IMG/VR virus record: IMGVR_UViG_3300008963_000727
Coordinates: 1 to 64,000 of that record
Direction: 5' to 3' (one strand)
Length of the DNA stretch: 64,000 nucleotides
Origin: a virus
Under the pieces are notes generated by a model. The model did no database searches. It had not been told where the DNA came from and was given only the letters and a program-made list of their open reading frames with translations. This document shows, piece after piece, positions 25,526 to 40,870 of this stretch; the stretch's first letter is position 1, and every line of letters starts with the position of its first letter. Both the position numbers and the translations under genes were made by a program.

Positions 25526-27580
25526 ATGAAGTGGATAACTCATTGGACAACGGCTCTCATAACCTTAATCTTAATTCTATCTATACACTACAGTGATGGG
25601 TTTATCACCGAGACGCTTCGCCTTAAACAATTTGACCTACTACAACAAACCGATCCCGTTCAAGTTTCCAAAGACATTGGCGTTGTTACTATTGATGAGG
25701 ATGCAATAGAACGATATGGACAATGGCCTTGGAGCAGGGAAACTATAGCAGATATAATATGGCAGTTGAGAAAAGATGGGGCAGGTGTAATTGTACTTCC
25801 TATTTTATTTTCAGAAATTGACAGGTTAGGGGGTGATGAGTATCTTGCTGAAACCCTTGAAAACAACAGCATAGTAATATCACAAACAGGCACACAGAGG
25901 TATAGTCAAAACTCTGTTCCAAGAGGCATCGCAAAAATAGGCGAACCTGTGCCCTATCTATTCCAATGGCAAGGCGTTTTGGGTCCTATTCCAGAGCTAG
26001 GAAAAGCAGCAGATGGTGTGGGCGTTATCAATACAGTTCCTGAGATAGACGGCGTTGTTCGCAGAGTGCCACTTCTTATGCGAGTAGAAGACGAGGTGTT
26101 TCCCTCTTTGGGAGTAGAAGTTATTAGAGTAGCAACAGGCCAACCATCTTATCAAGTAAAAGAATCTGGATCGGGAATAGAGGCAGTCCGAGTTCCCGGG
26201 TTTCCCATAATAAACACAGACCCCAATGGAAGAATATGGTTACGATGGAATAAAAAATTCCCCACCATATCTGCAGCAGAATCTGACTTTTCAGAGTTTC
26301 AAGGCAAAACTGTAATCATTGGTGCTCAAGCCGCAGGGATAAGTGGTATCATAGCCTCCCCAACAGGACCAAGATATAATTACGAACCCGCAGCAGTAAC
26401 TTTACAAACACTTATTGACGGCGAACAAATTGAGCGTCCTTACTGGGCATTTCAAGCAGAACTTGCATCTACTCTTGCGTTAGGCTTGGTGGTTATTGTT
26501 CTTGGAAGATTCACGCCTTATTGGGTAGTGGGTATAGGAATGATTGCACTTAGTGCCACACTTGTATTCGCTGTAGATTATGCTTGGTCTAACTATTTGT
26601 ACATGCTTGATGGTACAATGCCTCTTGCTGCATTAATTCTTGTTGGATTACACTCAGTATTTCTTCGCTTTGTGAAAGAATTTAAAGAAAAACAAGCAAT
26701 TAAAAAGCAATTTTCTGGATATGCTTCCCCACAAGTTGTAAAACTACTTCAGACCAATCCTGATTTAATCAAACACGGCACAAAAAAGAAAATCACAACC
26801 GTAATGACTGATCTCCGAGGATTTACTCCTCTAAGTGAAAGTTTTGGTGATGATGTTCAAGGTTTGACGCGTATGATGAACTCATATATGGATGCAATAT
26901 CCAAGCCCGTTCTTGAAAGTAATGCCATGATTATCAAGTACATTGGTGATGCAACCATGCATATTCACAATGCACCGATAGATGACGATATGCATGCTAC
27001 AAACGCTGTATCCACCGCATTAAAGATGTTATCTGCAGTTGATCGGTTCAATGAGCATTTGACAGAACAAAATAAACCACAAATTGGAATGGGTGTAGGA
27101 ATTAATACTGGTAAAGCCTATATGGGAGAAATTGGTAGTACTCAGCGTCACAGTTATGATGTATTGGGTGATAGTGTTAATGTTGCCGCTCGTTTAGAAG
27201 GACAATCAAAGTCCTATGGCGTAAGAATAGTCACAGGTTCTGAAACCGCTCATTTAACATACAAACAGTTTTTCTATCTGGAGTTAGATAAAATAGCAGT
27301 AAAAGGAAAGAGCAAACCGTTAAAAATTTACACGGTATTAGAACACGCCGAAAATACACCTGACGAATATTTTGATGCAAGAGAAAAGCATGATCGTATG
27401 TTAGAGATGTATCGCATTAAAAACTTTGATGAAACAATTACATTATGCAATGAGTTGTGTGGAAGTTTTGATGGTGCCATGGATGCTTATTATGATTTGT
27501 GGATAGAGCGTTGTAAATTTATGCTTGCCCAAGATTTGCCATCTGATTGGGATGGCACATTCACAGCAACCAGCAAATAA
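25526..27580 (+). CDS. CHASE2-domain class III adenylate/guanylate cyclase
   Basis: 684 residues: one N-terminal membrane helix, an extracytoplasmic CHASE2 domain (about residues 40-305, with DIGVVTIDEDAIERYGQWPW), three more membrane helices (~310-385) and a cytoplasmic class III catalytic domain (~415-605). The metal aspartates D429 (MTDLRGFT) and D475 (KYIGDATM), and SYDVLGDSVNVAARLEG with the transition-state Asn and Arg, are intact. The K and D of the substrate pocket favour ATP. It would make cAMP in the host in response to an envelope signal. Bacterial genes of this type often follow a fecR gene, as here. Confidence 0.92.
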   Translation: MKWITHWTTALITLILILSIHYSDGFITETLRLKQFDLLQQTDPVQVSKDIGVVTIDEDAIERYGQWPWSRETIADIIWQLRKDGAGVIVLPILFSEIDRLGGDEYLAETLENNSIVISQTGTQRYSQNSVPRGIAKIGEPVPYLFQWQGVLGPIPELGKAADGVGVINTVPEIDGVVRRVPLLMRVEDEVFPSLGVEVIRVATGQPSYQVKESGSGIEAVRVPGFPIINTDPNGRIWLRWNKKFPTISAAESDFSEFQGKTVIIGAQAAGISGIIASPTGPRYNYEPAAVTLQTLIDGEQIERPYWAFQAELASTLALGLVVIVLGRFTPYWVVGIGMIALSATLVFAVDYAWSNYLYMLDGTMPLAALILVGLHSVFLRFVKEFKEKQAIKKQFSGYASPQVVKLLQTNPDLIKHGTKKKITTVMTDLRGFTPLSESFGDDVQGLTRMMNSYMDAISKPVLESNAMIIKYIGDATMHIHNAPIDDDMHATNAVSTALKMLSAVDRFNEHLTEQNKPQIGMGVGINTGKAYMGEIGSTQRHSYDVLGDSVNVAARLEGQSKSYGVRIVTGSETAHLTYKQFFYLELDKIAVKGKSKPLKIYTVLEHAENTPDEYFDAREKHDRMLEMYRIKNFDETITLCNELCGSFDGAMDAYYDLWIERCKFMLAQDLPSDWDGTFTATSK

Positions 27581-38067: not shown

Positions 38068-38095
38068 GATCAGCAATAAATAATATTGTATGATC
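38068..38095 (+). promoter_or_regulatory. Late promoter inside a start-codon hairpin of the homing endonuclease
   Basis: GATCA-G-CAATA (38068-38078) pairs with TATTG-TA-TGATC (38084-38095); the ATG at 38090 lies in the 3' arm and ATAAATAA (38076-38083) in the loop side of the 5' arm. A late RNA starting at about 38089-38090 would be leaderless and free of the hairpin. Confidence 0.58.
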
Positions 38096-38914
38096 CATCA
38101 AAAAATAATAAAGTTAGTAAATCAAGGCTACCTCAAAAAAGATATTCCAGAAATTTTAGGAGTATCATATAGTTTGGTAAGAAAGGTTTCAAAAGGCATT
38201 GAGAGTAAAAATCGTTATGCATCAAGAAAAAATAACAATCCAGTAATAAATGCCAATTGTCAATATTGTGGTAAACTTTATAAAACAAAAGTATCTTTGC
38301 GTCAGCATGAAATACGGTGTAAAGAAAACCCCGACAAAATAAAAGTTAAACCTTCATATGGAATGTTAGGTAAGGAGGGAAAAGGTTCTAATCAGTTTCT
38401 AAAAGCAGAAAGATTAAATCAGCCAAAGCCTGTCGTCTCCGAAGAAACTAGAAAAAAAATATCAGAGGCGAGTAAAAAAAGAGTATGGACGACTGAACAA
38501 AAGTCTAATCATTCTAAATCTATGTTGAAAGCCGTTGAAGATTATCCTGAATCATATTCGGTGAATAACATTATTGGTAGAGTTAAACAAATTGAATACA
38601 GGGGAATTCTCTTAAAAGGTAATTGGGAAGTTAAGACCGCAGAGTGGCTAGACTTTAATAAAATAGAGTGGCAATATGAACATTGTTCTTATCCCTACAT
38701 TTTTGAGGGCAAAGAACGGCGTTATTTTCCAGATTTTTATTTGCCAGAGTATGATTCTTATTTGGAAGTAAAAGGATTTGAAACAGAACAAGATCGGGCA
38801 AAGTGGAATCAATTAACAGCAAATCTTGTAGTTATTGATAAAAAAGTAGTTGACAATTTGTATGATTATAGTATAATGCAACTATTGAATGAACATAAGT
38901 TTTTGGGACCATAG
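38090..38914 (+). CDS. PD-(D/E)XK-type homing endonuclease
   Basis: 274 residues. A helix-turn-helix-like N-terminus (LKKDIPEILGVSYSLVRKVS), a C2H2-like zinc finger (CQYCGKLYKTKVSLRQHEIRC, residues ~57-77) and a NUMOD-type motif with VSEETRKKISEASKKR. The C-terminal nuclease has RRYFPDFYLPEYDSYLEVKG, the PD...E-x-K core, as in vsr-like free-standing endonucleases. Its last 10 bases form the 5' end of the tRNA-CAT. Placement against a tRNA is typical of mobile endonucleases. Confidence 0.85.
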   Translation: MIHQKIIKLVNQGYLKKDIPEILGVSYSLVRKVSKGIESKNRYASRKNNNPVINANCQYCGKLYKTKVSLRQHEIRCKENPDKIKVKPSYGMLGKEGKGSNQFLKAERLNQPKPVVSEETRKKISEASKKRVWTTEQKSNHSKSMLKAVEDYPESYSVNNIIGRVKQIEYRGILLKGNWEVKTAEWLDFNKIEWQYEHCSYPYIFEGKERRYFPDFYLPEYDSYLEVKGFETEQDRAKWNQLTANLVVIDKKVVDNLYDYSIMQLLNEHKFLGP

Positions 38915-38982
38915 TTTAATTGGTTAAAACCCCGTCCTCATAAGACGCGTGAGTCTCAGTTCAAATCTGAGTGGTCCCACCA
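38905..38982 (+). tRNA. tRNA with CAT anticodon (Met, or Ile if modified by TilS)
   Basis: 78 nt with CCA. Acceptor GGGACCA with TGGTCCC, anticodon stem CGTC-CTCATAA-GACG, T-loop GTTCAAATC, A73. CTCATAA occurs in both elongator Met and tRNA-Ile2. A TilS-like gene at 45655 makes lysidine-modified Ile2 plausible. The 5' end overlaps the homing endonuclease stop. Confidence 0.9.
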
Positions 38983-39004
38983 TTTAAAAAAAATATGGAG
39001 ACAA

Positions 39005-39154
39005 TATAACGATACACACTCAGGGTTGCGTTCAGTGTACAAGACATGAACGGTAAATGTACTAGAACCATCGGGAGTGGCTTCCCGACTGCACTATACA
39101 GACCCTGCCAAATCCTAGGCTATCGGGCAATAAAAATGAGTGTGTATTGTTATG
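39005..39154 (+). ncRNA. Structured RNA A, closed by an 18-bp stem
   Basis: 39005-39022 pairs with 39137-39154, all 18 positions (two G-T wobbles). Inside are a TCGGGA/TCCCGA hairpin (39071-39088), a GTTC-A-GTGTAC / GTAC-TA-GAAC arm (39029-39069) and GCC/GGC around 39107-39120. About 150 nt, no ORF, directly after the tRNA-CAT. It lacks recognisable tmRNA, 6S or RNase P motifs. Resembles in position the stable RNAs C and D of the T4 tRNA region, but similarity was not tested. Confidence 0.75.
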
Positions 39155-39171
39155 GTGTCATCAATGCAATT

Positions 39172-39266
39172 TTTTAGTATAGAGACTGAAACACTCTGCA
39201 GGGTGTTCCTTTCGGTGGAGGAAGTTTACCTTTAGAGGGAAAAACCGAACAGTCTCTATTCTAAAA
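39172..39266 (+). ncRNA. Structured RNA B, three-way junction
   Basis: TTTTAG-T-ATAGAGACTG (39172-39188) pairs with CAGTCTCTAT-T-CTAAAA (39250-39266), 16 bp with one T-T mismatch. Inside: ACACTC-TGCA-GGGTGT hairpin (39191-39206) and TTCGGT (39211-39216) with ACCGAA (39244-39249). About 95 nt. Confidence 0.72.
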
Positions 39267-39282
39267 CATTGTTATCATTGAC

Positions 39283-39392
39283 AAGATGACTGCTGAAATG
39301 GGAGTAGCCGGGTTCGATTCCCGTGCACCCGGTGGCCGGTGATAAAAAGGTAGCTCCGCTCGGTGGTTCAACTCCACCCTGTCAGTCATCTT
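39283..39392 (+). ncRNA. Structured RNA C with two T-arm-like hairpins
   Basis: AAGATGACTG (39283-39292) pairs perfectly with CAGTCATCTT (39383-39392). Inside lie CGGG-TTCGATT-CCCG (39309-39323) and GGTGG-TTCAACT-CCACC (39362-39378), both with tRNA T-loop sequence and 7-nt loops, and AGC-TCC-GCT. No anticodon arm or CCA in the usual places. About 110 nt. Confidence 0.72.
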
Positions 39393-39429
39393 CTCAATGG
39401 TTTTAAAAGTAAAAAAATAGGAAAAATTT

Positions 39430-39876
39430 GTGATTGAAGAAACCGAAGAACCCGTAGTACGAATTCATCCACTTGAAAAGAAATCAGTGGATTATTTGGT
39501 TGAGATGTTTCAGAAAACACCTGAAGGTAATGTGCGTGGGTTTGATGTCACAGAGACTTACCGCTGGGGTCAGGGATTTGTTCCCGAAGAAGACATGGAT
39601 TGGGTTGAGGAAGAAGAAGTAGCAGTGTGCGACCCTCAACATGGATGGGGAGCAGAACTGGACGACCTTATCGCAGTATCCGTAGAATTCCATGGCGAAT
39701 TTGATTCCGAAGAACGAGATTATATTGAACAGTTATGCACTCGTGAAACAGAAGACGCTGATGGTCTTACAGGTTTGGAGTGGATCTTTGGTGGTGAGCA
39801 TGATTGGGAAGTGGATATGGAACAGATTCTAATTCGAGCACCTTTTGTTATAGACAAAGGCGAAGAAGACACTTAG
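39430..39876 (+). CDS. Acidic hypothetical protein
   Basis: 148 residues, GTG start after AGGAAAAAT. Very acidic (DMDWVEEEEVAVCDP, EFDSEERDYIEQ), aromatic WGQGF and HDWEVDME. No motif. It is the only coding gene between the structured RNAs. Confidence 0.72.
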   Translation: MIEETEEPVVRIHPLEKKSVDYLVEMFQKTPEGNVRGFDVTETYRWGQGFVPEEDMDWVEEEEVAVCDPQHGWGAELDDLIAVSVEFHGEFDSEERDYIEQLCTRETEDADGLTGLEWIFGGEHDWEVDMEQILIRAPFVIDKGEEDT

Positions 39877-39894
39877 TTTAAATATTAAATCATT

Positions 39895-39980
39895 ACCCCC
39901 TGTTCCCGACAGCGGTCTTCTAAACCGCTTCCTTAATGTTGGGTGGAAGGTGCAAGGTTCAATTCCTTCAGGGGGTGCCA
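39895..39980 (+). tRNA. tRNA-Arg (TCT)-like RNA lacking a D-arm
   Basis: Acceptor ACCCCCT (39895-39901) with AGGGGGT (39970-39976), discriminator G, CCA. Anticodon arm AGCGGT-CTTCTAA-ACCGCT (39911-39929) with TCT. T-loop GGTTCAATTCC. Only nine bases separate acceptor and anticodon stem; there is no D-arm. Instead CCCGAC (39905-39910) pairs with GTTGGG (39938-39943), extending the anticodon helix. May be a truncated tRNA, a tRNA mimic or a fourth structured RNA. Confidence 0.7.
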
Positions 39981-40578: not shown

Positions 40579-40608
40579 TGGTTAAGCCTGTTTTGAGTGG
40601 TAAACCAT

Positions 40609-40850
40609 CCAGAAGCGGTTGAAAAGTGAGGATGAACCCCAGTAAGTTTTTTCTTACTATTTTTTAACAGAGAACGCGTTGATGACGTGACTTTCTGCAG
40701 TGTTCCAAAGTGATTATTTGATTTTGTAAATTGTTCTTTGGAAATAAGCAGTTTGTAAATTGTGATTTGTGCATTGTTTATGCTGGATCACTGATACGGT
40801 TAATCAGCATATGTCTTTTGTTTTTGTTCATTACTCGTTCACCGCTTCTG
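40609..40850 (+). ncRNA. Structured RNA E, about 240 nt, closed by a long-range stem
   Basis: CAGAAGCGGT (40610-40619) pairs with ACCGCTTCTG (40841-40850); the helix continues imperfectly to ATGAAC (40632-40637) / GTTCAT (40826-40831). Inside: CTGC...TTCCAAAG (40695-40710) with CTTTGGAA...GCAG (40736-40751); ATGCTG (40780) with CAGCAT (40805-40810); a small hairpin 40641-40658. The direct repeat TTTGTAAATTGT occurs twice (40724, 40752). No ORF. A late promoter for the next gene begins 7 nt after the helix. Confidence 0.7.
40641..40665 (+). terminator. Weak hairpin-T terminator inside RNA E
   Basis: AGTAAG-TTTTTT-CTTACT followed by A and six T. All-AT-rich 6-bp stem, so termination may be partial; it would shut off the upstream gene. 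Confidence 0.55.
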
Positions 40851-40856
40851 TTTTTC

Positions 40857-40865
40857 TATAAATAT
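40857..40865 (+). promoter_or_regulatory. T4-type late promoter (TATAAATAT)
   Basis: TATAAATAT, five bases before ATG 40871. Confidence 0.72.
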
Positions 40866-40870
40866 CACTA

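What the first reader, a model, noticed from the sequence alone, without database searches (positions are those of the whole stretch)
39172..39266. RNA B: compact three-way-junction RNA
A 16-bp closing helix with one mismatch plus two internal helices gives a clean three-way junction of tRNA size but not tRNA sequence.
Basis: seen in the sequence. Interest (0 to 1): 0.72.

Follow-up and report, generated by a model that had tools for sequence, protein, structure and literature searches.

The report
Phage tRNA-array RNA cassette, shared helix
Next to its tRNA genes, a marine phage carries a roughly 100-base stretch that very probably makes a small RNA; its long closing stem recurs around otherwise different RNAs in the tRNA clusters of other uncultured phages, which points to an undescribed set of swappable RNA cassettes whose function is unproven.

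Summary
The closing helix is real and rare. It is longer than described: 22-nt arms at 39167-39188 and 39250-39271 with 20 Watson-Crick pairs. It is the only such helix in the window, and only 1 of 20 shuffled windows held any. The "clean three-way junction" is not established: the 61-nt interior folds no better than shuffled sequence (z -0.93), and one long arm scores slightly better than the junction.

The main result lies outside the finding. The helix's 17-bp core (UUUUAGAAUAGACAYUG/CARUGUCUAUUCUAAAA, two positions varying in RNA B) also closes RNAs with unrelated interiors in tRNA arrays of other uncultured phages. Across 14 distinct versions 98% of cells pair and 9 of 17 pairs show changes on both sides (0/500 shuffles). 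G-U outnumbers A-C 15 to 1 on the tRNA strand, which argues for RNA. RNA B sits between two other structured modules, behind a perfect sigma-70 consensus promoter and tRNA-Met. A syntenic relative has both neighbours but lacks RNA B.

No homologue of the interior was found. I read RNA B as an excisable RNA cassette, most likely a protein-binding decoy against host defence; the decoy function is inferred.

The parts
39167..39271 (+). RNA B, the whole cassette (105 nt)
39172..39188 (+). 5' arm of the shared 17-bp closing helix, TTTTAGTATAGAGACTG
   Evidence: same register as the helix in other phage tRNA arrays
39250..39266 (+). 3' arm of the shared closing helix, CAGTCTCTATTCTAAAA
39189..39249 (+). 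Interior (payload) of RNA B; fold ambiguous, no homologue found
   Evidence: searches
38850..38877 (+). Sigma-70-type promoter match, 12 of 12 bases, 16-nt spacer; perfect promoter at the equivalent place in L002 (1300-1327)
   Evidence: consensus match only
38905..38982 (+). tRNA-Met (CAT), first gene of the predicted unit
39000..39159 (+). RNA A, conserved structured RNA directly upstream of RNA B
   Evidence: 27 of 44 predicted pairs with compensatory changes in 11 sequences; model matches in 11 of 31 records
39276..39399 (+). RNA C, 17-nt closing arms (16 of 17 complementary) and two T-arm-like GGTTCRANNCC motifs (39311-39321, 39365-39375)
   Evidence: counterpart with three such motifs in L002

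Best explanation
RNA B is one cassette of a phage tRNA/noncoding-RNA array. It is transcribed from a sigma-70-type promoter together with tRNA-Met, RNA A and RNA C. Its closing helix is the conserved, interchangeable part: it lets the cassette fold on its own and is the likely place where nucleases free a stable RNA of about 95-105 nt. The interior is the variable payload. The most likely payload function is binding a host protein, as a decoy or RNA antitoxin against an RNA-dependent or tRNA-cleaving defence, which would explain why interiors differ while the helix is kept. Supported by sequence: membership of the shared-helix set and selection on the helix as RNA (about 0.85). Inferred: excision at the helix (about 0.6). 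Inferred by analogy only: the decoy function (about 0.3).
For: Closing helix far beyond chance. Its 17-bp core equals, in register and with one compensatory C-G to G-C change, a helix that closes RNAs with unrelated interiors in other phage tRNA arrays. Over 14 distinct helices 9 of 17 pairs change on both sides, 98.3% of cells pair, 0 of 500 shuffles match, slid controls collapse. G-U to A-C ratio 15:1 on the tRNA strand. Perfect consensus promoter upstream, also in L002. RNA B is absent from L002 although both flanking modules are there, and similar cassettes sit beside different neighbours in other contigs. Defence analogy: abiF RNA motif in the L023 array and a weak one in L031 with no Abi_2 gene detected in the records; an abiF RNA neutralises its toxin in trans by direct binding (PMC12373285); phage pseudo-ToxI RNA mimicry as precedent (PMC5449768).
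Against: No expression data. The interior is not more stable than chance and has no homologue, so nothing shows that it is selected. RNA B matches no known antitoxin RNA. The abiF motif is a neighbour in other phages, not part of RNA B. RNA A in this window has a different closing helix, so the shared helix is not used by every module here. The helices compared were selected by similarity and are related by descent, so the covariation counts are not independent.
Confidence: 0.5

Rival explanations
1. The helix is only a processing or insulating element. Nucleases cut in it to mature the neighbouring tRNA and RNAs, and the interior is filler without its own function.
For: The helix is what recurs, while interiors are unrelated. 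The RNA B interior folds like shuffled sequence and has no homologue. RNA B is dispensable: L002 lacks it.
Against: Some interiors are conserved between contigs (L025/L031, L023/L032, L022/L030) and RNA A's interior is strongly conserved and covarying, so the helix usually packages something that is kept. A pure spacer would not need about 60 to 140 nt inside.
Confidence: 0.3
2. RNA B is a miniature inverted-repeat mobile element: the arms are terminal repeats for a transposase, and the RNA helix is incidental.
For: Arms are inverted repeats of fixed length with variable interiors, present/absent between relatives.
Against: Arm sequences vary in compensated pairs rather than staying fixed. G-U outnumbers A-C 15 to 1 on the tRNA strand, not expected for a DNA repeat. 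No target-site duplication was apparent by eye in the comparison with L002. All copies seen are in tRNA/RNA arrays.
Confidence: 0.06
3. RNA B is a decayed tRNA whose acceptor stem was replaced or lengthened.
For: tRNA-like size, place in a tRNA array, and two cassettes with the same helix hold T-arm-like remnants (L031 6643-6755, L032 4109-4212).
Against: RNA B has no GGTTCRANNCC motif and no tRNA match by ARAGORN or Rfam, even at a permissive threshold.
Confidence: 0.08
4. Chance hairpin in AT-rich intergenic DNA.
For: The interior is not exceptional, and 1 of 20 shuffled windows held comparable helices.
Against: The arms match, in the right register, a helix sequence that recurs in other phage tRNA arrays, and the module lies between two other structured RNAs.
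Confidence: 0.02

Closest known systems
abiF RNA (Rfam RF03085), RNA antitoxin of AbiF/Abi_2 systems
   Same: Small structured RNA; the motif is present in a related phage array (L023) and weakly in another (L031). An abiF RNA acts in trans by binding a toxin (PMC12373285), the mode of action proposed here.
   Different: RNA B does not match RF03085; no Abi_2 gene found in the records searched.
Stable RNAs of the phage T4 tRNA cluster (species 1 and 2, RNA C and D)
   Same: Non-tRNA RNAs of about this size encoded inside a T4-type phage tRNA cluster (from memory).
   Different: Sequences were not compared here; no blastn similarity of RNA B to any of 50,697 phage records.
ROOL and GOLLD RNAs
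   Same: Ornate structured RNAs associated with phages (PMC12286853); often near tRNA genes (from memory).
   Different: Much larger; no Rfam match in this region even at a permissive threshold.
ToxI / pseudo-ToxI
   Same: Precedent for phage-encoded RNA mimicking a defence antitoxin (PMC5449768).
   Different: ToxI is a tandem-repeat pseudoknot RNA; RNA B is a single unit in a long helix. Not compared by sequence here.

Membership tests
Shared-helix phage RNA cassette (set described here) | 17-bp closing helix TTTTAGAATAGACAYTG/CARTGTCTATTCTAAAA or a compensated variant, in register | tested here: met
   16 of 17 positions paired, one compensatory flip, one U.U mismatch
Shared-helix phage RNA cassette (set described here) | Lies in a tRNA/noncoding-RNA cluster, on the tRNA strand | tested here: met
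   Between RNA A and RNA C, downstream of tRNA-Met on the + strand
Shared-helix phage RNA cassette (set described here) | Interior related to that of another cassette | tested here: not met
   Only the helix matches; interiors differ within the set, so this is not required for the helix-defined set
Shared-helix phage RNA cassette (set described here) | Released as a discrete RNA | not testable with these tools
   Needs RNA-seq or a Northern blot
tRNA | Cloverleaf with T-loop GGTTCRANNCC and acceptor end | tested here: not met
Any Rfam 15 family, including ROOL, GOLLD and abiF | Covariance-model score at the gathering cut-off | tested here: not met
   abiF searched separately
   Interior z -0.93; alternatives within 0.8-2.5 kcal/mol; no homologues for covariation
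MITE-like mobile element | Target-site duplication and fixed terminal-repeat sequence | tested here: not met
   No duplication apparent by eye against L002; arms vary in compensated pairs
T4 tRNA-cluster stable RNAs | Homologous sequence or structure | not tested
   T4 RNAs were not fetched or aligned; only the blastn search of phage records bears on it (no match)

The most novel reading that the evidence does not exclude
Uncultured phages carry banks of swappable RNA cassettes: different RNA effectors held in a common processing helix inside a tRNA array and used as decoys or antitoxins against host defences, with RNA B as one payload of unknown target.
Probability: 0.25. Interest if true: 0.85.

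Novelty: new variant of a known kind. Interest (0 to 1): 0.58.

Why it matters
Phage tRNA clusters are usually annotated for tRNAs only. Here the gaps hold a recurrent, covarying helix that packages different RNAs. The 17-bp helix is a sequence handle for finding hidden RNAs in uncultured viruses, and some of these arrays carry a motif of a known RNA antitoxin (one clear, one weak). If the payloads are defence decoys, the set would be a source of RNA-based counter-defence factors, and the idea is directly testable in laboratory strains.

Tried and rejected
1) Interior homologues of RNA B: exact and gapped patterns in IMG/VR; a covariance model over 31 records (itself on both strands, the L022 closing helix, and one marginal E 0.07 hit in the record of L008 that I did not follow up); blastn in phage and plasmid records (none; one E = 3 chance match); blastn and nhmmer over fetched loci. 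Nothing beyond the closing helix.
2) Rfam at gathering and permissive thresholds: tRNAs, abiF in L023, and chance or tRNA-derived matches only.
3) GTDB genomes: no match to the closing-helix pattern or to the RNA A core.
4) More relatives through neighbouring proteins: only the contig of L002. Relatives found through the cyclase gene (L003-L019) show no RNA A.
6) An Abi_2 toxin beside the abiF motif: not found in 12 records, several of them fragments.
7) gp23 family search in the genome: nothing, and the controls were silent too, so uninformative.
8) Literature searches found no description of this helix or of RNA A; the library is partial.

Full report
WHERE IT IS. The window lies in a 194,522-bp IMG/VR virus record. 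In the one gene compared with isolate phages, a cyclase at 25526-27580, the best matches are Methylophilales phages of the Melnitz group (57% identity) and Pelagibacter phage HTVC008M. The finding lies between a tRNA-Met (38905-38982) and an ORF starting at 39430. No ORF of 50 aa or more overlaps 38915-39429 on either strand.

WHAT IS REALLY THERE. The inverted repeat is longer than reported: 39167-39188 pairs with 39250-39271, 20 of 22 positions Watson-Crick. A scan of the window for helices of this quality found only this one; 19 of 20 dinucleotide shuffles had none. The 95-mer folds at z -3.77. In the whole predicted transcript the helix keeps pair probabilities of 0.9 to 1.0 except at its two mismatches and one pair of 0.78. 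The interior is another matter. Alone, 39189-39249 folds at z -0.93, and 35 of 200 shuffles do as well. The closing helix is established; the three-way junction is possible but unproven.

THE UNIT. Three modules follow each other closely, each closed by a long helix: RNA A (39000-39159), RNA B (39167-39271), RNA C (39276-39399). A perfect sigma-70 consensus match (12 of 12) lies at 38850-38877, just before tRNA-Met. A relative, L002, has a perfect promoter match at the equivalent place, then tRNA-Met, RNA A and a counterpart of RNA C with three T-arm-like motifs, but no RNA B. RNA B is therefore a dispensable module, gained here or lost there.

THE SHARED HELIX. RNA A's near-invariant core occurs in ten IMG/VR contigs, some dense with tRNA genes (21 in L022, 20 in L029). 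In these phages the helix TTTTAGAATAGACAYTG/CARTGTCTATTCTAAAA closes RNA A and also RNAs with unrelated interiors, 72-177 nt overall. RNA B's helix is the same sequence in the same register, apart from one mismatch and one compensatory C-G to G-C change. Over 14 distinct helices 98.3% of cells pair and 9 of 17 pairs have changes on both sides; none of 500 shuffles matched and slid versions collapse. On the tRNA strand G-U outnumbers A-C 15 to 1 (38 to 4 in RNA A). An A-C cell on this strand would be G-U on the other, so the bias points to selection on RNA from the tRNA strand rather than on a DNA repeat. Cautions: the helices were picked for similarity, they are related by descent, and I joined the arms by hand for the alignment. 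The swap of both partners at several positions is the stronger point. RNA A itself has 27 of 44 predicted pairs with a compensatory change in at least one sequence.

CASSETTE BEHAVIOUR. Similar cassettes sit beside different neighbours: L025 545-618 and L031 6323-6396; L023 2913-2998 and L032 3764-3848; L022 5880-5962 and L030 664-746. Two cassettes hold T-arm-like remnants (L031 6643-6755, L032 4109-4212). This looks like exchange of payloads within a common frame; it is an inference from contig comparison, not an observed event.

HOW IT MOST LIKELY WORKS. Supported by sequence: RNA B belongs to a set of modules with a shared helix that is conserved as structure, on the tRNA strand, behind a strong consensus promoter. 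Inferred: transcription as one unit with tRNA-Met, independent folding, and cutting at or beside the helix to free a stable RNA. Inferred by analogy, with lower confidence: the interior binds a host protein as a decoy or antitoxin. The analogy rests on an abiF RNA motif in the L023 array (45.4 bits, cut-off 37) and a weak one in L031 (23.8 bits), without a detectable Abi_2 gene in the records searched; on the experimental result that an abiF RNA neutralises its toxin in trans by direct binding (PMC12373285); and on phage pseudo-ToxI mimicry (described in PMC5449768). RNA B itself matches neither abiF nor any other Rfam family. The main rival, that the helix is just a processing spacer, is not excluded for RNA B, because its interior has no homologue.

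NOVELTY. No Rfam family matches RNA A, B or C in the window. RNA B has no match among 50,697 phage records, and a stretch with two RNA A copies has none either. Papers found describe an abiF RNA in a cyanophage (PMC9964418) and large phage-associated RNAs (PMC12286853), not this helix; the library is incomplete. Non-tRNA RNAs in phage tRNA clusters are known (T4; from memory), so I rate this a new variant of a known kind: the shared-helix cassette set appears undescribed.

LIMITS. Uncultured sequence only, no expression data, host unknown, a single copy of RNA B, interior without homologues.

Noticed in passing
window 39000-39159; L002, L020-L026, L028, L029: RNA A: a conserved structured RNA of about 160 nt with a near-invariant 3' core (GCCAAATCCTAGGCTATCGGGCAATAAA), 27 covarying pairs, no Rfam match and no match in isolate phages; two copies in L026. 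Probably a better-supported finding than RNA B.
   Followed up: partly
window 39276-39399; L002 1625-1800: RNA C: a long closing helix around two T-arm-like motifs (three in L002), as if several T-arms were mounted in one RNA.
   Followed up: partly
window 39894-39977: tRNA-like element with a UCU-type anticodon loop (CTTCTAA), long acceptor, long variable arm and only about 9 nt where the D-arm should be; missed by ARAGORN, weak tRNA-Sec match in Rfam (34.6 bits, cut-off 47). L002 has an ordinary tRNA-Arg(TCT) at the corresponding place.
   Followed up: no
window 40580-40870; L002 2505-2800: Possible further structured RNA: 23-nt inverted repeat 40610-40632/40828-40850 between two ORFs, arms well conserved in L002 while the interior diverges.
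   Followed up: no
window 38090-38914: Endonuclease-like ORF (best PHROG annotated as endonuclease) directly before tRNA-Met, absent at that place in L002; it ends with its own perfect promoter match, so the array keeps a promoter on either side of the insertion.
   Followed up: partly
L023 3624-3655 (-); L031 8881-8912 (+): abiF RNA motif (clear in L023, weak in L031) in phage tRNA arrays, with no Abi_2 gene found in the records searched: possibly a solitary antitoxin RNA.
   Followed up: partly
L022, L025, L030, L031: Modules between the shared-helix cassettes are closed by a second recurrent stem (CACACT...AGTGTG), suggesting at least two helix types alternating in the arrays.
   Followed up: no
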